Virus record (IMG/VR): IMGVR_UViG_3300042515_001753
Coordinates: 1-64,000 of that record
Reading direction: 5' to 3' (one strand)
Length of the DNA stretch: 64,000 nt
Source: a virus
In this document: in pieces, positions 54,074-63,454 of the stretch
How positions within the stretch are numbered: position 1 is the first letter of the stretch
Layout: each line of letters begins with the position of its first letter
Translations under genes and position numbers: made by a program
The notes under the pieces: model-generated
Told to the model about the DNA's origin: nothing
The model's database searches: none
Seen by the model: the letters and a program-made list of their open reading frames with translations, nothing else

Positions 54074-55203
54074 ATTAGAAACATTCCTGGTTGTGCTTCA
54101 AGGTAATTTCTTGGATAAAATCTATATGATTTTCCCATAGAAGCATTTGAACTTGCTACTTCCATTTTATATCTAATTTGAATAATTAAATTACTATTAC
54201 CAGAAAGTCTAGTTCCATCCGGTTTTGAAAGATAAATCTCTATTTTGGGGTCTCCAGATGCATTCATTCTAGCACTATATCTACTGTTTGCAAGTATATC
54301 TCTAAACTCTCTATTGGCAACTCTGGTCTTTACTTGACCTGTGCTTGTAAATTTAACTAGTTCGGTATTTACATTTCTAGATAGTCCAAAAATAATATAA
54401 TCAGCAAATTTAACTTTAGTATCCGTAGATTCTACAGTATCTAATCCTTCATTTAATTTTTCAGTTGCATATGCATAAACAAGTCTTGCCGCTTTTTTTA
54501 ACTGTTCTCCACCACCAGTAGACTTTGCCGATTCCCTTGATGGATACTTTTTAGTGTATACTTCAATATCAAAAAAATTATCAATAAATTTCTGATATTT
54601 TTCTTGAATTGGAGATACATCTAAACCCATCTCACCAAAAATACTTAAAAACTTATCAAATCCTTGTCCCGATACTTGATGGAATTGTTCCCCACCAGAA
54701 ACCTTTAAAGAATAGTCAATATTTCTAAACCTTTTATCAGGATTGGTGGGGGAATTAACTTCTACGTTAACATCTGCTTTAGTTCCTTTTTGGTCTAATG
54801 TTCCTGCAGCAGATATTCTAATATTATCTTCTCTTTCATTAATTGATAGTCCCCTTGCTTGAGCATTCAATCTACTATGAGAATTAACAAATGATACTGC
54901 ACCGGATCTTAAATCTGAAACTTTATTCCAATTTGCTCTAACTGATAAAAAATCTTGAGCCTTTCTAGGAACAGATACTGTTACTGAAACCGTATCAATT
55001 ACAGCACTCCCAACATCATTAACTTGTTTAGCATACCCACGCTTCATCATTTCAGTCAATATAATATCAACATCAGATGTATTTACAGTTGGTAATGTTT
55101 TTGAAGTCTTTAGTTTTGCTCTTTTTACAAACCGAGCAGCAACTGCGGCAGCAAAAAATACCTCAAATAAATCACCTCTATTTGCTGGAATAGATTCTGC
55201 CAT
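54070..55203 (-). CDS. Hypothetical protein (377 aa)
   Basis: Not recognised. MAESIPANRGDLFEVFFAAA, VAARFVKRAKLKT at the N-terminus; central KADVNVEVNSPTNPDKRFRN, IDYSLKVSGGEQFHQVSGQG; C-terminal EIYLSKPDGTRLSGNSNLII and YRFYPRNYLEAQPGMFLI. The G-D-L-F-E start, then a D-V-N-V-E-V strand, is reminiscent of PD-(D/E)XK-type folds, but this is weak. CTAAATA upstream as possible late promoter. Confidence 0.6.
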   Translation of the reverse strand: MAESIPANRGDLFEVFFAAAVAARFVKRAKLKTSKTLPTVNTSDVDIILTEMMKRGYAKQVNDVGSAVIDTVSVTVSVPRKAQDFLSVRANWNKVSDLRSGAVSFVNSHSRLNAQARGLSINEREDNIRISAAGTLDQKGTKADVNVEVNSPTNPDKRFRNIDYSLKVSGGEQFHQVSGQGFDKFLSIFGEMGLDVSPIQEKYQKFIDNFFDIEVYTKKYPSRESAKSTGGGEQLKKAARLVYAYATEKLNEGLDTVESTDTKVKFADYIIFGLSRNVNTELVKFTSTGQVKTRVANREFRDILANSRYSARMNASGDPKIEIYLSKPDGTRLSGNSNLIIQIRYKMEVASSNASMGKSYRFYPRNYLEAQPGMFLI

Positions 55204-55244
55204 AAGTATTTTATTTTTATTTAGTGCTTAAGACTACCGAAGGG

Positions 55245-55424
55245 TCATTCACCAACTACAGCACCAATCTTTTCATCAAGGTCTAAAATCACGGCACGAA
55301 TGTCAGAAATACGAGGAGGAACAGAAAGTTCATCATAGGTATAACCTTTTTGATTCTCAAAAAGAATTTGACGAACGGCAGCGGCAGTCCGAACATCCAT
55401 CTTAACAGATACTGTTTTAGTCAT
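55245..55424 (-). CDS. Hypothetical protein (59 aa)
   Basis: MTKTVSVKMDVRTAAAVRQI, LFENQKGYTYDELSVPPRIS, then an amphipathic helix LDLDEKIGAVVGE. Start shares a base with the MazG gene stop. Ribbon-helix-helix-like start is possible. Unknown. Confidence 0.6.
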   Translation of the reverse strand: MTKTVSVKMDVRTAAAVRQILFENQKGYTYDELSVPPRISDIRAVILDLDEKIGAVVGE

Positions 55425-55834
55425 CAAATGTCTCCATCTTCACGATTTTCACTATAGTATGCGTCAAAAAATCCGTCTGGATAACGCTTCATCAGTTTAT
55501 CAATATTAGTCTGAATTACTTCATCAAAAGAGACATCAAGAGCAATACACGCTTGTGCCACATACCACATCGTATCACCCAGTTCCTTAATCAAGTGAGT
55601 ACGGGTCTCATCATTCCAAGACTTACCTTGAAAGACCATTTTCTTGACTATTTCTAAAAACTCACCACCCTCGGCATTAATTCCCACAGAGGCAGTCAGA
55701 AGACGCTCAATATTAGCACCTTTCTCATCCAACTGAACCATACGGTCAGAAAGAGCAAGGAAATCTTTGGATGCATCAGAAGTTACGGCATCTACGAAGT
55801 TCTGATACTTATTAAAATCAACTCGTTGTGTCAT
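55424..55834 (-). CDS. mazG: MazG-like nucleotide pyrophosphohydrolase (136 aa)
   Basis: MazG motif ExxE...ExxD: GINAEGGEFLEIVKKMVFQG (residues ~50-69) and THLIKELGDTMWYVAQACIA (~78-97), all four metal ligands present. Hydrolyses NTPs, in cyanophages suggested to act on (d)GTP/(p)ppGpp-linked pools and to help reprogramme host metabolism. Overlaps gp41 C-part gene by 4 bases. Confidence 0.88.
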   Translation of the reverse strand: MTQRVDFNKYQNFVDAVTSDASKDFLALSDRMVQLDEKGANIERLLTASVGINAEGGEFLEIVKKMVFQGKSWNDETRTHLIKELGDTMWYVAQACIALDVSFDEVIQTNIDKLMKRYPDGFFDAYYSENREDGDI

Positions 55835-57003
55835 GAAAATTTAAATCCCTCAAATGATTTTTTTGGTTTATTTTCTTCATTATTATACTCCTCTTCTTTA
55901 CCGCTGTCAAGTATGTCGTTTTGTGCGGACTGTTCTACATCATAAAGTCTCATTTTGGCACGGTCAATTCCAACAACGAAACGCTTAAAGATTGTTGGGT
56001 CATTATATCTGTTTTTAAGTTGCTTCACCATAATCTGCCCTAGACCTTCTAATTCCTCGGTACTAATCAGAGCAAACATAAGGTCGGCAGTAGCAGGAAG
56101 ACCGAACGATTCAGAAGTATCGGTCAATTCTACATCGGAAGAACCAAAACCGCTCCTAGTCGTCTGTGTCGCACTCATAATAGGAACATTAAACTCTACT
56201 GCCAAACCACGAAGTTCTTCGGCAATAGACTTAACCAAAGTATAAGAATTGATATTACTACCACTCTTAAATCGTGAGGAGGAGCAAATATTCAAATAGT
56301 CAATAAAGATAATATCAGGTCTAAATGATTTCTTCAGAGCAAGTTCATTCAGAAGTGCCTTGAAGTGCCCGGAGTGTGCCGAAGCAGTAGGATATTCTTT
56401 GATTACCAAAGAACCCCGAGTCTTCTTGGAAATACCATTTACTTTATTCTCAAATGCTGAGCGTGGTAAATCAATCAGTTGTTGAATTGGAACATTAAGA
56501 AGATTCGCATCAATTCTTTCGGCAATTCTTTCTTCTGCCATTTCAAGAGTAATATAAAGAACATTTCTATTCTGTAGTAAGGCAGAACTGGCAACGTGAC
56601 ACATAAAGAGAGATTTTCCAACTCCAGTATTGTGAGAGGAAACTCCATTAGTGTAATATCTATGATTTGGATGATTTACATTAATATCTACAATAGGTAT
56701 TTGTTTATTGTTTTTATAAACCCGACCAATTTTAATACCCTCGTTAGTAATCAATTTGTATATTAAGTTAGATTGTTCCATTTCTTTAGCGGAAATCCAA
56801 CCTTCAGTAGTTTCAAACAAATGGGACTCATTACAACTAACTTTATTACCCCCCATCATAAGCAATTCATATTCTTCATACATCCCCTTATTAATAAAAA
56901 AATTAACAGGAACATATCCATCGGGAGAATCAACCTCCACTTCATATCCATTATCAAGTAATGTTTTGATTTCAGCAATCGATGTTTCTTTTTCAATCCA
57001 CAT
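55831..57003 (-). CDS. 41: gp41 helicase C-terminal part with C-intein (390 aa)
   Basis: Residues 1-125 are a C-terminal split-intein piece: a block-B-like NKVSCNESHLFETTEGWISA and block F/G VDINVNHPNHRYYTNGV ending SSHN, the penultimate His and terminal Asn needed for splicing. Residue 126 (Thr, +1) starts the helicase: TGVGKSLFMCHVASSALLQN (rest of Walker A), IIFIDYLNICSS (Walker B), SATQTTRSGFGSSDVELTD, GIDRAKMRLYDVE. Trans-splicing with the 57688-58320 product would give a 459-residue DnaB-type replicative helicase, close to T4 gp41 (475). Confidence 0.93.
   Translation of the reverse strand: MWIEKETSIAEIKTLLDNGYEVEVDSPDGYVPVNFFINKGMYEEYELLMMGGNKVSCNESHLFETTEGWISAKEMEQSNLIYKLITNEGIKIGRVYKNNKQIPIVDINVNHPNHRYYTNGVSSHNTGVGKSLFMCHVASSALLQNRNVLYITLEMAEERIAERIDANLLNVPIQQLIDLPRSAFENKVNGISKKTRGSLVIKEYPTASAHSGHFKALLNELALKKSFRPDIIFIDYLNICSSSRFKSGSNINSYTLVKSIAEELRGLAVEFNVPIMSATQTTRSGFGSSDVELTDTSESFGLPATADLMFALISTEELEGLGQIMVKQLKNRYNDPTIFKRFVVGIDRAKMRLYDVEQSAQNDILDSGKEEEYNNEENKPKKSFEGFKFS
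56629..57003 (-). other. C-terminal half of atypical split intein (125 codons)
   Basis: Starts at its own ATG (57003). It carries blocks B, F and G, so almost all of the intein fold is on this side, and the N half is only 16 residues. The intein splits the helicase Walker A motif (AG^TGVGKS). Confidence 0.9.
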
Positions 57004-57007
57004 TTTG

Positions 57008-57015
57008 TATAAATA
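57008..57015 (+). promoter_or_regulatory. Late promoter TATAAATA (plus strand)
   Basis: Exact match 21 bases before the antisense HNH gene; the only plus-strand exact match I noticed directly ahead of a gene. Confidence 0.6.
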
Positions 57016-57035
57016 CCATTAGCAGGGACAGGGAA

Positions 57036-57704
57036 ATGTTTAATCAAATCTATTCTAACTTATGTGAAGGCAATAAGTCAAGAAAAGAAAACTATAAAAA
57101 ATATTCTGGGTTACACGAACATCATATTATTCCCAAACATATGGGGGGAAGTGATGAAGATTTTAATCTAACATATTTAAATGTTAGAGAACATATATTG
57201 GCACATTATTTGTTGTGGAAGATATATAAAAATCCAAATGATTTAAGGTCTATGAAAATGTTGGGAGCAAACTTATCTCCACAATATAGAAAAATAACAG
57301 GAGAATTTTGTCGTGACAATAATATTGGTATTTTTTCCATTCCATCAAATGAAAGAAAAAAATGGACAATAAAAGGAATAGAAAGTCAAAAACAAGATTA
57401 CTTAACAAATCAAACAAAAAATTTTTACTATTGGAGCACCGAAGAGGGAAGAAAAGAAAGGGCATCTCTTGGAGGAAAGAAGATGGGGTCAAAAGAATTT
57501 AGTTATTGGGCATCTAATGAAGGAAGAAAAACACGATCATCATTAGGGGGAAAGGCGCATAAAGGAAAAAAGGTAATGCATTTGCCCGGAACAAAGGGAT
57601 GGAAAAGAATATCACCAGAAGAAGTTGATATAAAACTAAATGAAGGTTGGAAGTTTGGAACTGGAGAACCAGCACCAAACTCCAAAATCAAGAAATCTTC
57701 CTAA
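57036..57704 (+). CDS. HNH homing endonuclease between gp41 halves (222 aa)
   Basis: Start at 57036 (MFNQIYSNLCEGNKSRKENY), after AGGGA. HNH core HEHHIIPKHMGGSDEDFNLT and LNVREHILAHYLLWKIYKNP (residues ~30-70). The middle (TEEGRKERASLGGKKMGSKE, ASNEGRKTRSSLGGKAHKGK) holds two copies of a DNA-binding module. It fills the entire gap between the two gp41 pieces in reverse orientation, overlapping the N-piece end by 17 bases. Presumed to cut intein-free gp41 alleles. Paralogue of the HNH protein at 59933-60721 (REH.IAH.LL.KIY). Confidence 0.88.
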   Translation: MFNQIYSNLCEGNKSRKENYKKYSGLHEHHIIPKHMGGSDEDFNLTYLNVREHILAHYLLWKIYKNPNDLRSMKMLGANLSPQYRKITGEFCRDNNIGIFSIPSNERKKWTIKGIESQKQDYLTNQTKNFYYWSTEEGRKERASLGGKKMGSKEFSYWASNEGRKTRSSLGGKAHKGKKVMHLPGTKGWKRISPEEVDIKLNEGWKFGTGEPAPNSKIKKSS

Positions 57705-58320
57705 ATCTAATTTTAACTATAGTTTCTGGATGAACGCAACCGGCAAGAGCAATATTCAGAGTCTTATTAGGTAATCCACCTTTTGTGATTTTGTTGAAAT
57801 ATTCTAGGTCAAATTCAATCTTATCTTCTTTACGATGATAAAACTCATATCGTTCCTCATAATTCTGAAGATAATCGTGACCTATATTATTATCAAAAGA
57901 TACTGCCAAGGCATCGGAAAGAATACTGGGAATGGCATCTCTACCTTTTTTATCATCCTTACCATCGGCAATATGAATGGACTCCATGAGTGCCAAGTAA
58001 ATAGCACGGTCACGGCACCACTTTTCGGTAGTATCCAGTATCCACTGCTTATCCACAGGACTATCATTAAGTTTAGAAAGTAATTCTACTATTTCCTTAT
58101 TTTCAGATTCTGTCAAATCTCTACGATTATCAATCTCAATATTGAGTGCTTCTATTGTAATTGAAGAACCATACTTAACGATGAACTCAACAATTTCCTC
58201 AAAAACTATCTTTTCTACTCTTTGCTCATAGTACTCCGGTTGAATAAAAGGAATAACCTTTCTGGCATAGTCTTCATTAAATACTAAGTTTCTAAGGATT
58301 GTAAGTTCAAGTCGTTCCAT
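57688..58320 (-). CDS. 41: gp41 helicase N-terminal part with N-intein (210 aa)
   Basis: Residues 1-194 match the N-terminal half of a DnaB-like helicase (RLELTILRNLVFNEDYARKV, hinge NYEERYEFYHRKEDKIEFDL, YFNKITKGGLPNKTLNIALA G). Residues 195-210 are CVHPETIVKIRFRKIS, then stop: a 16-residue N-intein beginning with the nucleophilic Cys. The protein ends there, so without trans-splicing it lacks the P-loop lysine and cannot act as an ATPase. Ends tail-to-tail with the HNH gene. Confidence 0.92.
   Translation of the reverse strand: MERLELTILRNLVFNEDYARKVIPFIQPEYYEQRVEKIVFEEIVEFIVKYGSSITIEALNIEIDNRRDLTESENKEIVELLSKLNDSPVDKQWILDTTEKWCRDRAIYLALMESIHIADGKDDKKGRDAIPSILSDALAVSFDNNIGHDYLQNYEERYEFYHRKEDKIEFDLEYFNKITKGGLPNKTLNIALAGCVHPETIVKIRFRKIS
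57691..57738 (-). other. N-terminal half of atypical split intein (16 codons)
   Basis: CVHPETIVKIRFRKIS: only intein block A is present (Cys1, then a beta strand). This split position matches the atypically split inteins described from metagenomes (VidaL/AceL type, very short N part). Confidence 0.88.
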
Positions 58321-58328
58321 TATTTTAA

Positions 58329-58874
58329 TTAAAGATTTCGTTTATGATGCGGAACATCGAATACAAAAGTAATTCTAATGTTGTCGCCAATATTAACTGC
58401 CTTATGGGGTAGTTTATTATTGAACCAAAATAGTGTTCCCGGTTCAATAGTTGTAGTTTCATCCCCAACAGTATACTCGTATTTTCCCTGAATGGAAAGG
58501 TGATATCTATCCTTCGTAAGATAATAAGTTCCTTCGTCAATATGAGAACCCACAATTTCACCGACTGGAAGTGCCAAGAATCCACAACGACGGAGTTTCT
58601 TAAAATACTTTCCCAAGTAATTAAGAATCTCCGTATGTTTTTCATATGCCGGGGTTTTAATACATATTTCAGTATTCCCGACATATTGGTTCTCTTTTTC
58701 AACTCCACCCATTATAAGTTGCAACACATCCACAGTAACAGTATATTCTGTGGGGTCTAGTTGTTCGGAGTCTTCAATATTTTTTTGAGAACCCCAGTCT
58801 TCAGGATATTGCTTAAGTTGTTCTAATATTTTAGAAACATTTACATTAGTTTTTATTATACGAATATTTTTCAT
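58329..58874 (-). CDS. 2OG-Fe(II)/Asp-hydroxylase-like oxygenase (181 aa)
   Basis: A cupin-type dioxygenase: VGSHIDEGTYYLTKDRYHLS gives H-x-D (iron), YHLSIQGKYEYTVG the strand that binds 2-oxoglutarate, and TLFWFNNKLPHKAVNIGDNI the distal His, then RITFVFDVPHH. This arrangement is that of aspartyl/asparaginyl beta-hydroxylase-like proteins, frequent in cyanophages. Target unknown. Overlaps uvsX by 4 bases. Confidence 0.8.
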   Translation of the reverse strand: MKNIRIIKTNVNVSKILEQLKQYPEDWGSQKNIEDSEQLDPTEYTVTVDVLQLIMGGVEKENQYVGNTEICIKTPAYEKHTEILNYLGKYFKKLRRCGFLALPVGEIVGSHIDEGTYYLTKDRYHLSIQGKYEYTVGDETTTIEPGTLFWFNNKLPHKAVNIGDNIRITFVFDVPHHKRNL

Positions 58875-59899
58875 ACACCATAACTAAACTCACCCTTGGC
58901 AATCACATCAAGTTTTTCCATTACTTCTGGTGTAAAATATTTTTCGGTATTTTTTAAGATTTCTTTGGCATAAAGTTTCTTACCATCAATCTCATAACGA
59001 CCTGCTACATTCTTCCAGAGTCCACCAATCTCACCAAGTTCAAGAAGACCGTAGTAACGATCAAGACCGCGCTCATCATAATACAGACGGATTTCAACAT
59101 CTTGATTCTCCTTACTTAAACGTGATTTGTGAGTCTTTGCCCTGATAATGTTTCCAATTACTTCCGTTCCATCTTTTTCTTTTGACTTAGAAAGATAGAT
59201 AATTGTAGACGCTGCATATTGCAATCCAGAACCACCAGACATTTGTTTACCACCATAAAGAGACATCGACTCATAGGTGTGATTTGTCACTAGCATAGGA
59301 ATCTTTGCCTGTCCCAATTTGAGAGTCAGCATACGGAAGGCACCTTTGATAAGTTGTGCCTTCGTCATATCACGAGTATCCTTCTCTGCCAGAGCATCAT
59401 TAATTTCTTTGTTGGTAGAAAGCATTCCCAGAGAATCTAATACAAAGATACAAGGGTTTCTTTCATCCTCTTTTTTCTTTAGGTAAATATCAACTGCCTT
59501 GAGTGTTTTGGTACGAAACTCTTCTACCGTAACTACATTGACAACCACCAGACGACTTGTGTCAACTCCCCTACTTTCCAGAAGGGATTTTGTGATTGCT
59601 GCTTCAGTATCAAAATACAGACAATATCCAGTAGGATTATTATCAAGGAAATTTTTAACGACGGCAAGACTGAAGAAAGTTTTTCCAGTAGAAGTTTCAC
59701 CAGCGATTGCAGTAATCTTATTCCCAGATACACCACCAAATATACTGCCGGATACAAGAGCATTAAAAATGTACGAACCCGTATCCACATAAGTTTCAGT
59801 TTCATCAATATCCGAAGCGAGTTGAGTGTATTCTCCACCAATCTCCTTCACTATGTCACGCAAAAAATTTAATCCAGAATCTGCCATTTTTCTACCCAT
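58871..59899 (-). CDS. uvsX: UvsX RecA-like recombinase
   Basis: Walker A GETSTGKT (residues 67-74), YCLYFDTEAAITKSLLESRG, Walker B CIFVLDSLGML, MTKAQLIKGAFRMLTLKLGQ, loop-2 region TYESMSLYGGKQMSGGSGLQ. 342 residues, normal UvsX length, no intein. Forms filaments on single-stranded DNA for strand exchange and recombination-dependent replication. An internal ATG at 59887 is an alternative start. Strong promoter TTGACT-17-TATAAT just upstream. Confidence 0.95.
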   Translation of the reverse strand: MGRKMADSGLNFLRDIVKEIGGEYTQLASDIDETETYVDTGSYIFNALVSGSIFGGVSGNKITAIAGETSTGKTFFSLAVVKNFLDNNPTGYCLYFDTEAAITKSLLESRGVDTSRLVVVNVVTVEEFRTKTLKAVDIYLKKKEDERNPCIFVLDSLGMLSTNKEINDALAEKDTRDMTKAQLIKGAFRMLTLKLGQAKIPMLVTNHTYESMSLYGGKQMSGGSGLQYAASTIIYLSKSKEKDGTEVIGNIIRAKTHKSRLSKENQDVEIRLYYDERGLDRYYGLLELGEIGGLWKNVAGRYEIDGKKLYAKEILKNTEKYFTPEVMEKLDVIAKGEFSYGV

Positions 59900-59907
59900 T
59901 TTTAATG

Positions 59908-59936
59908 ATTATACTACAAAAACCACTTCAAGTCAA
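59908..59936 (-). promoter_or_regulatory. Promoter TTGACT-17-TATAAT for uvsX
   Basis: -35 at 59931-59936 overlaps the end of the HNH gene; -10 at 59908-59913; nine bases to the first ATG. Confidence 0.65.
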
Positions 59937-60721
59937 CTTTGTTGAGGAACAGCACGATAACCTTTATGTGATTTCGTATTCCTTTTATAATTAAGAAGAT
60001 TCCAAGTAGTTCCAACATCTAAATTATTTTCTTTACAAAATTTAGTAATATTTTTCCCACAAATAATTTCACCCTGAGGATTTATAATTGAAAATTCTTT
60101 ACTTTTCTTCTCCACTATTTTATTTACAATTTCAATATCTCGTTTCTTTCCATAAAGATAATGCTTTTCCCCACTTCTTGCTTCACTCCATTTTTTCTTG
60201 GTTTCTTCTGTGTGAATTCTGCCTTTATTTGCTTCACTTATTTTTAACTTAGATTCTTCACTATGAATTTTTCCTTTCCAAGAATCTAATAATTTATTTC
60301 TATGTTCTTGAGTTAAGGGTATTCCATATTTTGGATGATTTTCTCCACTTTTAGATATACTCATTTTATTTCTAGTTTCCTCAGTCATAACATATGGTTT
60401 TTTACCTTTCTTTGATTCGGACATTCTAATTCTTGCGATTCCATAAAGATGAGAATTATAATATCTACCTTTTGATTTCATTAAAATATGAGCGTGAATC
60501 ATTTTAGTAGTTTTTTTATCCTTAATTCCACACCTCTTAATATAAATCTTTTCCAATAAAGCGTGAGCGATATAATGTTCCCTTGATGTTAGAACTACAA
60601 TCCTTTTATTATTTCCAAAGATACTTTTTGGAAATGTATGATGCTTTTCTGTATAACCTTCAGGTGGAGTTCTGTTCTCTACTTTCCTGATAAGATTGCA
60701 ATAATGCTTTAGATAGTTCAT
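59933..60721 (-). CDS. HNH-NUMOD3 homing endonuclease (262 aa)
   Basis: HNH core near the N-terminus (EGYTEKHHTFPKSIFGNNKR, TSREHYIAHALLEKIY), then repeated NUMOD3-like helices (residues ~100-190: MSESKKGKKPY, SGENHPKYGIPLTQEHRNK, ISEANKGRIHTEETKKKWSE) and a C-terminal NUMOD1-like segment (IINPQGEIICGKNITKFCKE). Located between gp43 and uvsX without interrupting either, so a free-standing element. Core paralogous to the HNH protein at 57036. Confidence 0.85.
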   Translation of the reverse strand: MNYLKHYCNLIRKVENRTPPEGYTEKHHTFPKSIFGNNKRIVVLTSREHYIAHALLEKIYIKRCGIKDKKTTKMIHAHILMKSKGRYYNSHLYGIARIRMSESKKGKKPYVMTEETRNKMSISKSGENHPKYGIPLTQEHRNKLLDSWKGKIHSEESKLKISEANKGRIHTEETKKKWSEARSGEKHYLYGKKRDIEIVNKIVEKKSKEFSIINPQGEIICGKNITKFCKENNLDVGTTWNLLNYKRNTKSHKGYRAVPQQS

Positions 60722-60731
60722 TTATATTCTA

Positions 60732-60806
60732 TTGAGAGTGCATTACTATTTATAATAGAAAAGGTGCCCTGAAGCACCTAATCTTCCTGTGAAATTGCAC
60801 TCTCAA
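60732..60806. repeat. 11-bp inverted repeat around terminator/late promoter
   Basis: TTGAGAGTGCA (60732-60742) and TGCACTCTCAA (60796-60806) are perfect complements and enclose hairpin GGTGCTTCAGGGCACC (60763-60778) and TATAAATA (60747-60754), just upstream of the HNH gene. May mark the inserted segment. Confidence 0.6.
60747..60778 (-). terminator. gp43 terminator running into late promoter
   Basis: GGTGC/GCACC hairpin, TTTTCTAT tract, then TATAAATA (60754-60747) before the HNH-NUMOD3 gene. Confidence 0.65.
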
Positions 60807-60815
60807 CAGGTGTAG

Positions 60816-60953
60816 TTATTTATCTTCCTGTTTTTGTTTATTGAGATAATTCATTTTATAAGACCAAAGTTTTTGATAAAGAGCAGTATCTCCACCAATC
60901 CTCATAGCACTAATAATAGTATTCAGTTCTTTTTCGTTAATAGGTAAATTCAT
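60816..60953 (-). CDS. Small hypothetical protein (45 aa)
   Basis: MNLPINEKELNTIISAMRIG, DTALYQKLWSYKMNYLNKQK. Start shares one base with the gp43 stop, so it is translated as its operon partner. Similar small proteins are found after polymerase genes of T4-like cyanophages. Unknown. Confidence 0.6.
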   Translation of the reverse strand: MNLPINEKELNTIISAMRIGGDTALYQKLWSYKMNYLNKQKQEDK

Positions 60954-63454
60954 CAGGTAAAAAATGAATCAAGATTTGTTGTATGTTCGGTTTTCCATCC
61001 AATCGAATCCAAAATAGACTTGAGTGGGTCTAAGAAACTCTTCTCAAATTGTAGTTCATAATCAATATATTTGTCAAGTCCCAATTCCTTTGGAAATTCG
61101 GAGATGAAGGAAATAACATTCTCTTGTATAATATTGGGTTTTTTTAAGAAAATATACTTAACTTTCTCACCATTATTAATAAGTGAATATTTGTTAGTAA
61201 GTTTTTTCTCTTTTATATAATGATTGAAGAGAAGTGCTCCACGAACATGAATTGGAGTTTTGGATGCGTAAATATTTGATGATGAATAATATTTACGGAC
61301 ATCAGATGCCGTTCGGGGAAAAGCAATTTGCTCTGGTGGAAGAGATTTAAATTCTTGGAGGCACTCATCAATAAATCGAATCACCTCATCTTCAGTTCCA
61401 CTCATCATAATCTTCAGACCATCTTTAATCATCTTGCGGCAAGGTGCCGGAGTTGAAGACTTGACTGCCTCAATACCCATCATCTTCAATTTAGGTTCGG
61501 TGTATCGCACACCTTCACTATCCCAAACATTCAGAATGTAACGCTTCTTGGCAGTCCAAATTCCACGGTCGGCAATATTCTCCCGTTTCATTTGCATCTT
61601 TTGATCGTATGCGTTTACATAGTCCGCCAGTTCTTGGTAGCAACCTTCAATATACTTTTCAAGTTCCACCTTACAGATCTTATCAAGGAACGAAACAACG
61701 CTTTCAGTAGTTTTCTCTCTTCCCTGGTATACAGTTTCAACCAAAGGACCCATATTGAGATAAATGGAGTCAGTATCAGAAGCAATAACATAATCAACAC
61801 TCTTAGTTTTAAGAACTTTGTTTAGATAAGAGTTCATCTTCTCTTCAATCCAACGAATGGCAACCTGACCCGAAAGAGTAATTGCCTCAGCATTTGCTAG
61901 TTTGAAATAACGGAAATACTGATTCCCAATAGCACCATAAGCAGAGTTAAGAGAAATCTTTTTTGCCATTTGGATGTTATTACATCTTGCAATTTCTTTC
62001 TCAAGTTCTTTTGATTTTTTCTTCTCATACTGTTTTTTTGCCTCAATCATCTTCTCCTTATATACAACACGATCATTATACATTTTCTCCATTAGTTCTG
62101 GAAGAAAACCACGAATGTCCTTACGGTACATAGCACCATTAGGGCAAACTGCATAATCCTTATACATATCAAAAGTAAGTTCCTGATTGAGAATTTTATC
62201 CACGGTTACACTAGGATGCCTTTCTTCAACAAGTGTTTCGGGACTTACATTAAATTGCATAATCAAATGTGGATAAAGACTGTTTAAGTCAAAATTAACC
62301 ACCCAATCATACTTTCCAGGAATTGGTTCTTTTACATAAGCTCCAGCATACTTGGAATCTTTATCAGTTTTTTCTTTCGGAGGAATTACAATATTCCTCT
62401 GCTTAAGATAATTATAGATAATCGTATCCCACATTCTTACCTGAGAAAACACATCCTCATAGTTTACCTTACCATCATATGCCATAGTCAAGGCAAGTTC
62501 AATCAGTTTCATCTTGTCTTCCAAACGGTCAACAAGTTCTACGTCAACGATGTTGTATTCTACAAACTTCTGCCAACCTTTAGTATAGAAGTCCTTAAAA
62601 GTATCAAACTCAGAGTGATCCAGTTTTTTCTGATTGAGTTCTACGCTGGCAATATGATCTAGACGATAAGATTCCTGCGCTTTATAAGTGAATTTCTTAT
62701 AAAGTTTAATGTAATCTAATTGACTAATACCACCAATATCATAGGAAATGTGCTTTCTTCCAGATATGTAAACTTCATCCTCAGTCACAAGACCCCAGGG
62801 TGACATACGCTTCATCAATTTCTCACCCAAAACTCTATCCAGGCGACGAACGAGATAGGGAATATCATAAAGTTCACTGTTCCAACCAGTAATAACCTCT
62901 GGAGTATTATCCTCAATCATCCACCAGTGAATAAAATCATTTAATAGACTATACTCATCAGAGAATCCTCGGTAAGAAACATTTGATTGATTATTATCAA
63001 ACTTACCCAATCCCCAAGTACGAATTTGTTTCGTATTATAGTCTTGAAGTGTAATGAGTAGTACTTCTTCTGCCGCATTTTCCACATCAGGAAATCCATT
63101 TTCGGATGCAACCTCAATGTCAATTGTGGTAAGTTTAATTTTACTAATATCAAACTTAATTTCATTTTCCGGATATTTGTCCGAAATATATTGATAGATG
63201 TACTTGTCGTTTCCGTAAATTTTAAAGTTTTGTACATCAGTATACTTCTTAATAAACTCTCTACAATCCCTTACAGAACCAGGTTGAATAGGTTCTACAT
63301 ATTCTCCCTGAAGTGTCGTATATTTGGTTGTTTTTTTAGACGGAACAAAAAGAGTAGGAGAGAACTTCTCACGGGTCATAAAATGTCTACCATTTTCATA
63401 ACCACGAACCAAGAAGTGGTCCCCAACCATTTGCACGTTTGTATAAAAATTCAT
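60953..63454 (-). CDS. 43: DNA polymerase gp43, family B (833 aa)
   Basis: 3'-5' exonuclease motifs TTIDIEVASENG (D112, E114) and WNSELYDIPYLVRR, then polymerase motif A NFDLNSLYPHLIMQFN, motif B KKISLNSAYGAIGNQYFRYF and motif C VIASDTDSIYLN (both catalytic Asp). 833 residues, typical for cyanophage gp43, shorter than T4's 898. No intein in motif A/B/C, the usual insertion sites. Replicates the phage genome with clamp gp45 (outside the window). Confidence 0.97.
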   Translation of the reverse strand: MNFYTNVQMVGDHFLVRGYENGRHFMTREKFSPTLFVPSKKTTKYTTLQGEYVEPIQPGSVRDCREFIKKYTDVQNFKIYGNDKYIYQYISDKYPENEIKFDISKIKLTTIDIEVASENGFPDVENAAEEVLLITLQDYNTKQIRTWGLGKFDNNQSNVSYRGFSDEYSLLNDFIHWWMIEDNTPEVITGWNSELYDIPYLVRRLDRVLGEKLMKRMSPWGLVTEDEVYISGRKHISYDIGGISQLDYIKLYKKFTYKAQESYRLDHIASVELNQKKLDHSEFDTFKDFYTKGWQKFVEYNIVDVELVDRLEDKMKLIELALTMAYDGKVNYEDVFSQVRMWDTIIYNYLKQRNIVIPPKEKTDKDSKYAGAYVKEPIPGKYDWVVNFDLNSLYPHLIMQFNVSPETLVEERHPSVTVDKILNQELTFDMYKDYAVCPNGAMYRKDIRGFLPELMEKMYNDRVVYKEKMIEAKKQYEKKKSKELEKEIARCNNIQMAKKISLNSAYGAIGNQYFRYFKLANAEAITLSGQVAIRWIEEKMNSYLNKVLKTKSVDYVIASDTDSIYLNMGPLVETVYQGREKTTESVVSFLDKICKVELEKYIEGCYQELADYVNAYDQKMQMKRENIADRGIWTAKKRYILNVWDSEGVRYTEPKLKMMGIEAVKSSTPAPCRKMIKDGLKIMMSGTEDEVIRFIDECLQEFKSLPPEQIAFPRTASDVRKYYSSSNIYASKTPIHVRGALLFNHYIKEKKLTNKYSLINNGEKVKYIFLKKPNIIQENVISFISEFPKELGLDKYIDYELQFEKSFLDPLKSILDSIGWKTEHTTNLDSFFT

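What the first reader, a model, noticed from the sequence alone, without database searches (positions are those of the whole stretch)
55831..58320. Replicative helicase gp41 fractured by an atypical split intein, with an antisense HNH gene in the break
The helicase is encoded by two separate genes that stop and start exactly inside the Walker A loop (ALAG^TGVGKS). The first ends with a 16-residue N-intein (CVHPETIVKIRFRKIS), the second begins with a 125-residue C-intein ending in SSHN. A 222-aa HNH nuclease lies between them on the opposite strand with its own TATAAATA promoter. Fractured genes with split inteins and free-standing nucleases were described from marine metagenomes, and very short N-inteins (VidaL/AceL type) are also known; here both features occur together in an essential gene of a phage genome. 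The phage must perform protein trans-splicing to replicate.
Basis: partly seen in the sequence, partly recalled or inferred. Interest (0 to 1): 0.95.

Follow-up and report, generated by a model that had tools for sequence, protein, structure and literature searches.

The report
Split-intein helicase gene housing a nuclease
A cyanobacterial virus carries its DNA-unwinding enzyme as two separate genes whose protein products must be stitched together by a split intein, with a homing-nuclease gene sitting backwards in the gap; the arrangement is of a known kind, but relatives show the element still jumping between viruses, losing its nuclease and even re-fusing.

Summary
In a 234-kb virus record related to the freshwater cyanophage S-SRM01 (Kyanoviridae), replicative helicase gp41 is two genes broken inside Walker A (ALAG|TGVGKS). 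The first ends in a 16-aa N-intein, the second begins with a 125-aa C-intein, and a 222-aa HNH gene with its own late promoter lies antisense between them. No other gp41 was found in the record. The intein is a homologue of VidaL (model TM 0.88; same split point). I found 82 distinct loci in IMG/VR. All keep SHN and Thr+1, and all 71 readable split N-inteins begin with Cys1. Intein and HNH travel together and not with the helicase: intein DNA 98.9% identical where exteins are 79%, presence/absence changed at least 18 times, and the +1 codon is carried along. Relatives include HNH-less, HNH-decayed, sense-HNH and re-fused forms, and helicases in three pieces with a second, gp41-1-type split intein. 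So this is a homing atypically split intein with a dedicated HNH nuclease. Splicing, cutting and promoter use are inferred, not shown.

The parts
57688..58320 (-). gp41 N-half gene (210 aa, stop included)
   Evidence: PHROG 19 DnaB-like helicase positions 161-361, E 5.6e-42
57739..58320 (-). N-extein, 194 aa, ends ...NIALAG (first part of Walker A)
57691..57738 (-). N-intein, 16 aa, CVHPETIVKIRFRKIS
   Evidence: 71 readable split relatives have 14-23 aa, median 16, all starting with Cys
57036..57704 (+). HNH endonuclease gene, 222 aa, antisense to gp41; its 3' end overlaps the 3' end of the N-half gene by 17 nt
   Evidence: PHROG 655 homing endonuclease E 6.8e-15; Pfam HNH sub-threshold, E 0.012; invariant H27/H29/H30/N44/H53/H57; dN/dS 0.13
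57008..57015 (+). TATAAATA, T4-type late promoter of the HNH gene
   Evidence: fixed place in nearly all intact-HNH loci of the close group, mutated where HNH is broken in L050, L070, L071, absent in the close HNH-less loci
57052..57081 (-). Candidate sigma-70-type promoter of the C-half (TTGACT-18-TAGAAT), inside HNH codons 6-16 on the opposite strand
   Evidence: inference, moderate support
55831..57003 (-). gp41 C-half gene (390 aa, stop included)
   Evidence: PHROG 19 positions 362-598, E 1.2e-81; Pfam DnaB_C E 3.7e-16
56629..57003 (-). C-intein, 125 aa, ends ...NGVSSHN
   Evidence: VidaL homology E 2.3e-11 alone, 5e-16 with the family profile; model of a contiguous relative, TM 0.88 to 6vgv
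55834..56628 (-). C-extein, 265 aa, begins TGVGKSLF (rest of Walker A)

Best explanation
A mobile, atypically split (VidaL-type) class 1 intein in the Walker A loop of a cyanophage gp41 helicase. The two halves are translated separately. The 16-aa N-intein and the 125-aa C-intein associate, Cys1 and Thr+1 carry out the acyl shifts, Asn125 cyclises, and the two exteins are joined into one 459-aa helicase. The HNH protein, made late from its own TATAAATA promoter, is most likely the homing endonuclease that cuts uninterrupted gp41 alleles of co-infecting phages at or near this site, so that repair copies N-intein, HNH and C-intein together into the cut allele. Shown by sequence: architecture, conservation of catalytic residues, selection on HNH and intein, co-travel of intein and HNH against the helicase background, repeated gain and loss. 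Inferred: actual splicing, actual cutting and the cut site, and that a promoter hidden in the HNH gene serves the C-half.
For: Exact anatomy; VidaL homologue by sequence and model; SHN and Thr+1 in all 82 loci, Cys1 in all 71 split loci read, N-intein 14-23 aa. HNH: all 73 IMG/VR relatives found lie at the gp41 break, none elsewhere; dN/dS 0.13, no internal stop in 64 full copies. Mobility: window vs L002/L003 exteins about 79% but C-intein 98.9% DNA identity, with identity stepping at the intein border; extein and intein trees reject each other's groupings (AU p 4e-54 and 6e-14); third-position identity exteins 52.5, C-intein 76.8, HNH 76.7, intein-HNH correlation 0.79 against about 0.2 with exteins; nearest uninterrupted allele 96-97% identical with a gap-free empty site; at least 18 presence/absence changes and +1 codon ACT in 45/51 interrupted vs 10/82 uninterrupted, 9-11 of 13 independent pairs in favour and 0-1 against. 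In L070/L071 the sequence just upstream of the C-half is unrelated to the N-half, and no N-half lies in the 16-kb contigs, so the halves do not need to be neighbours.
Against: No splicing, nuclease or transcription experiment was possible. The HNH model has no significant PDB fold match (best E 0.3, HNH domain of Cas8-HNH) and Pfam HNH is below its cut-off. Intein and HNH are not always linked: L002/L003 share the intein at 98.9% but have a different HNH, and L006 has it at 95% with no HNH, so they can move or be replaced separately. The uninterrupted alleles were collected by similarity to one phage (S-SRM01), which may exaggerate the codon contrast.
Confidence: 0.86

Rival explanations
1. 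The HNH is a parasite of the intein: it homes into HNH-less intein genes (split or contiguous) and does not move the intein itself into intein-less helicase genes.
For: Intein and HNH are sometimes decoupled (L002/L003: same intein, other HNH; L006: no HNH). HNH-less split and contiguous inteins exist as possible targets. Sense and antisense HNHs occupy the same gap, as if invaded more than once.
Against: Intein and HNH divergences correlate at 0.79 across 435 pairs and both are far less diverged than the exteins; inteins jump into uninterrupted backgrounds many times; most interrupted loci carry an HNH.
Confidence: 0.2
2. The two halves work as a two-subunit helicase without splicing, as in the gene-in-pieces NrdA of phage Aeh1.
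For: A nuclease-split enzyme that works unspliced is known: NAR Genom Bioinform 2023 (PMC10448857) mentions a nucleotide reductase split by an HEG; that this is Aeh1 NrdA is own knowledge. No splicing data exist here.
Against: The break lies inside Walker A, the catalytic intein residues are kept in all loci, the intein evolves under constraint (dN/dS 0.26), and contiguous inteins at the same site (L063-L068, L180) would disrupt the helicase unless they splice.
Confidence: 0.04
3. RNA-level repair (group I intron or trans-spliced RNA) or a dead, decaying gene.
For: Cyanophages do carry group I introns (own knowledge).
Against: No Rfam family matches 55000-61000; the gap holds an antisense gene under selection; the halves carry intein ends with conserved catalytic residues; exteins are under strong purifying selection (dN/dS 0.09-0.13).
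Confidence: 0.02
4. Assembly artefact.
For: All data are metagenomic contigs.
Against: Identical locus in three further contigs of other samples (L004, L005, L007) and 82 distinct loci with the same break.
Confidence: 0.005

Closest known systems
VidaL split intein (PDB 6vgv/6vgw)
   Same: 16-aa N-intein, same split point after beta-strand 2, homologous over the whole C-intein (E 5e-16), model TM 0.88, rmsd 1.5 A, ends HN. Its natural locus is also a fractured gene broken in Walker A.
   Different: About 30% identity; VidaL sits in UvsX (GESG|...HN|SGKS, +1 Ser); the endonuclease in L158 is a 373-aa sense ORF that I read as Vsr/EDxHD-like by eye (only weak, sub-cut-off hits), and L160 has none.
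Fractured genes with split inteins and free-standing endonucleases (Dassa et al. 2009, NAR 37:2560; text not held, known by title in PMC7090010 and PMC13014065 and from memory)
   Same: Conserved phage DNA enzyme broken by a split intein with an endonuclease gene in the gap.
   Different: Loci used from that work (gp41-1, gp41-8, NrdJ-1, IMPDH-1) are split canonically; here the split is atypical, at another gp41 site, with an antisense HNH.
gp41-1 split intein (PDB 6qaz, 6riz)
   Same: Split intein in cyanophage gp41; Hint fold.
   Different: Other insertion site (SGY|SSS), canonical split of about 88 + 37 aa; absent from the window but present as a second break in several relatives.
AceL-TerL / GOS-TerL and PolB16 OarG atypically split inteins (PMC13014065, PMC10189870)
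   Same: Short N-intein (15-37 aa).
   Different: Other hosts genes; TerL ones split after the first helix; PolB16 uses Ser1.
Aeh1 NrdA gene in pieces (own knowledge) and collaborative homing F-CphI/psbA (title cited in PMC10448857)
   Same: Endonuclease gene inside or beside an essential phage gene.
   Different: No split intein involved.

Membership tests
Class 1 intein (Hint fold) | Cys/Ser1, block B His, C-terminal His-Asn, Ser/Thr/Cys +1 | tested here: met
   Cys1 in 71/71 split loci read; N58/H61, H124/N125 invariant in the alignment; SHN and Thr+1 in 82/82
Class 1 intein (Hint fold) | Horseshoe Hint fold | tested here: met
   Model of contiguous relative L063, pLDDT 94, 48 PDB matches at E<=0.001, inteins or intein-like domains
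Class 1 intein (Hint fold) | Protein splicing activity | not testable with these tools
   needs expression
VidaL-type atypically split intein | Natural split right after beta-strand 2, N-intein about 16 aa | tested here: met
   N-intein 16 aa; strand 7-13 then split at 16 in the model; alignment to VidaL begins right after its N-intein; definition from PMC13014065
Fractured gene (Dassa 2009) | Conserved enzyme broken by split intein with free-standing endonuclease gene in between | tested here: met
HNH homing endonuclease | HNH beta-beta-alpha motif and similarity to phage homing endonucleases | tested here: met
   PHROG 655 E 6.8e-15; invariant His/Asn; Pfam HNH only E 0.012, below cut-off; fold match not significant
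HNH homing endonuclease | Cuts the uninterrupted allele and spreads the element | tested here: inconclusive
   Spread is shown indirectly; cutting not testable
gp41-1 family split intein | Insertion at SGY|SSS and canonical split | tested here: not met
   Window gp41 is uninterrupted at SGF-GSS
Group I intron | Intron RNA structure | tested here: not met
   No Rfam match in 55000-61000

The most novel reading that the evidence does not exclude
The nuclease gene and the broken helicase are bound by shared control DNA: the first codons of the antisense HNH gene carry, on the other strand, the early promoter of the helicase C-half, while the HNH itself is fired late. Deleting the nuclease then costs the phage its helicase unless the halves re-couple or re-fuse. 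Repeated invasions of this kind have built helicases in three pieces that need two unrelated split inteins to work.
Probability: 0.45. Interest if true: 0.75.

Novelty: new member of a known kind. Interest (0 to 1): 0.6.

Why it matters
It gives what I have not seen described for atypically split inteins: a natural series from uninterrupted gene through split intein with nuclease, nuclease stub and nuclease-free split to re-fused contiguous intein, in one gene of one virus family, with signs of recent horizontal movement. That makes the open question of how and why inteins become split directly testable. It also supplies about 80 new natural ultra-short-N split inteins of use in protein ligation, some of them working next to a second, different split intein in the same protein.

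Tried and rejected
Assembly artefact (rejected: independent contigs). RNA intron (no Rfam hit). Second intact gp41 in the record (none). Other intein families in the record by Pfam Intein_splicing (none at E<=1; the model also misses this intein at its cut-off, so this is weak). The intein in isolated phages: only distant relatives in INPHARED (best 29-31%, UvsX and TerL). HNH fold search: nothing significant. Dassa 2009, Aranko 2014 and the VidaL papers are not held as text. Chance promoter: consensus scan alone is not significant (13 found, 10 expected), so only conservation was used. N-half of L070/L071: not in the 16-kb contigs, so its place is unknown.

Full report
WHAT IS THERE. The window belongs to a 233,886-base virus record. 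The replication genes match cyanomyoviruses best, S-SRM01 first (79.6% DNA identity over polymerase and UvsX). On the minus strand run DNA polymerase, a NUMOD3/HNH-type ORF, UvsX, a small gene, the gp41 N-half, the gp41 C-half and a gene at the place of the MazG-like pyrophosphatase of S-SRM01. S-SRM01 has the same order with gp41 as one 459-codon gene. In the window gp41 stops after ALAG plus 16 residues and restarts with 125 residues ending SSHN before TGVGKS. The exteins joined align end to end with two intact gp41 proteins.

THE INTEIN. The C-intein alone finds VidaL in the PDB (E 2.3e-11, from the residue after VidaL's own N-intein to its end), and a family profile gives 5e-16. The model of a naturally contiguous relative (L063, 142 aa) has pLDDT 94 and VidaL is the best PDB fold match (TM 0.88, rmsd 1.5 A). 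The 16-residue piece ends right after the second strand, the site that PMC13014065 gives for VidaL.

RELATIVES. Scans of IMG/VR gave 82 distinct gp41 loci with this intein: 56 with a full antisense HNH, 4 with a different, shorter antisense HNH, 5 with a sense HNH, 7 split with no HNH, 4 with only a stub of the HNH (one or two of these may be cut by contig ends), 4 contiguous (two lineages) and 2 unread. N-inteins of split loci are 14-23 aa, all begin with Cys; all C-inteins end SHN and are followed by Thr. The contiguous L180 still has a Met at the old start of the C-half, and L063-L068 sit inside the HNH-bearing part of the helicase tree, so at least these two look like re-fusions.

THE NUCLEASE. 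PHROG 655 homing endonuclease (E 6.8e-15), dN/dS 0.13, no stop in 64 full copies. Every one of 73 relatives found lies at the gp41 break. TATAAATA stands at the same place before nearly every intact copy of the close group and is damaged where the HNH is broken in L050, L070 and L071; it is absent in the close HNH-less loci. L047 is one exception with an intact HNH and a changed box, and the stub L057 keeps the box. In the window TATAAATA also precedes other genes, the second HNH-type gene among them.

HOMING. The window's intein is 98.9% identical in DNA to that of L002/L003, whose exteins differ by 21%, and identity steps at the intein border. The extein tree rejects the intein's grouping (AU p 4e-54) and the intein tree rejects the extein sisters (p 6e-14). 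Over 435 pairs of loci, third-position identity is 52.5% for exteins but about 77% for intein and HNH; intein and HNH divergence correlate at 0.79, either with exteins at about 0.2. An uninterrupted gp41 (L287) is 96-97% identical to the window's exteins and shows a gap-free empty site. On a tree of 119 alleles, presence changes at least 18 times, and the first codon after the intein is ACT in 45 of 51 interrupted but 10 of 82 uninterrupted alleles; in independent pairs 9-11 agree and 0-1 disagree (median p 0.004). The codon contrast runs several codons into the C-extein and hardly into the N-extein, as if repair tracts run mainly that way (inference).

A SHARED PROMOTER? Codons 6-16 of the HNH gene read on the other strand contain TTGACT-18-TAGAAT, 48 nt before the C-half start. 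Four of four degenerate third bases in it are invariant in 40 sequences (chance about 0.004), all four HNH stubs keep it, the four loci with another HNH have TTTACA-17-TATGAT at the same distance, and contiguous or HNH-less loci have nothing comparable. The more distant antisense-HNH loci do not have it. This is a hypothesis with moderate support.

THREE PIECES. Eight of 72 loci with enough sequence have a second break in the C-extein. Seven are at SGY|S, where gp41-1 sits; L047's piece is gp41-1-like at E 1e-51, with a GIY-YIG-type gene (PHROG 5123 E 6e-11) in that gap and the third gp41 piece after it. So L047 carries both split inteins and both nuclease genes. The window lacks this second break.

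COMPARISON AND NOVELTY. Fractured genes and atypically split inteins are both published (PMC13014065, PMC7090010; Dassa 2009 itself could not be read). VidaL's own locus, found here in IMG/VR, is a fractured UvsX with a sense nuclease in L158 and none in L160. The window is therefore a new member of a known kind; the comparative series, the mobility evidence and the three-piece genes are what add interest. My paper library lacks most subscription journals, so prior reports of this helicase family cannot be excluded; I recall a Lake Vida T4-like-helicase intein in the literature but could not check it.

Noticed in passing
L047:634-4317, L027, L057, L081, L132, L179; also L023, L065, L180: gp41 broken a second time at the gp41-1 site by another split intein, with a GIY-YIG-type gene in the gap of L047, L027 and L057: helicase in three pieces with two unrelated split inteins (in L065 and L180 the first intein is contiguous).
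   Followed up: partly
L162 (C-extein about residue 173): A further intein-like N-part in gp41 at ...TDTSE|C..., a third insertion site.
   Followed up: no
L158-L161: Natural home of the VidaL intein: UvsX broken in Walker A; L158 has a 373-aa sense ORF in the gap, L160 has none. L160:3-1016 looks like the C-part of a split-intein TerL in the same phage.
   Followed up: partly
window 59933-60721 (-): Second homing-type endonuclease gene (NUMOD3, PHROG 655) between DNA polymerase and UvsX, with TATAAATA at 60747-60754.
   Followed up: no
L286, L287, L295, L296: Uninterrupted gp41 alleles with a recoded Walker A patch (NICLAGTG[TA]GKS) in otherwise matching sequence; possible nuclease-resistant site.
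   Followed up: partly
L070, L071: gp41 C-half preceded by genes unrelated to the N-half, which is not found in the 16-kb contigs; an HNH stub of about 20 codons with the candidate promoter is kept.
   Followed up: partly
L026, L039, L050, L057 gaps: An extra gene-like stretch (MDAQE...NLQEAY type) lies in the widened gap between HNH and N-half in several loci (read in L050 and L057, inferred from gap length in the others).
   Followed up: no
window 55910-55882 (-): A perfect TTGACA-17-TATAAT inside the end of the gp41 C-half, pointing at the next gene.
   Followed up: no
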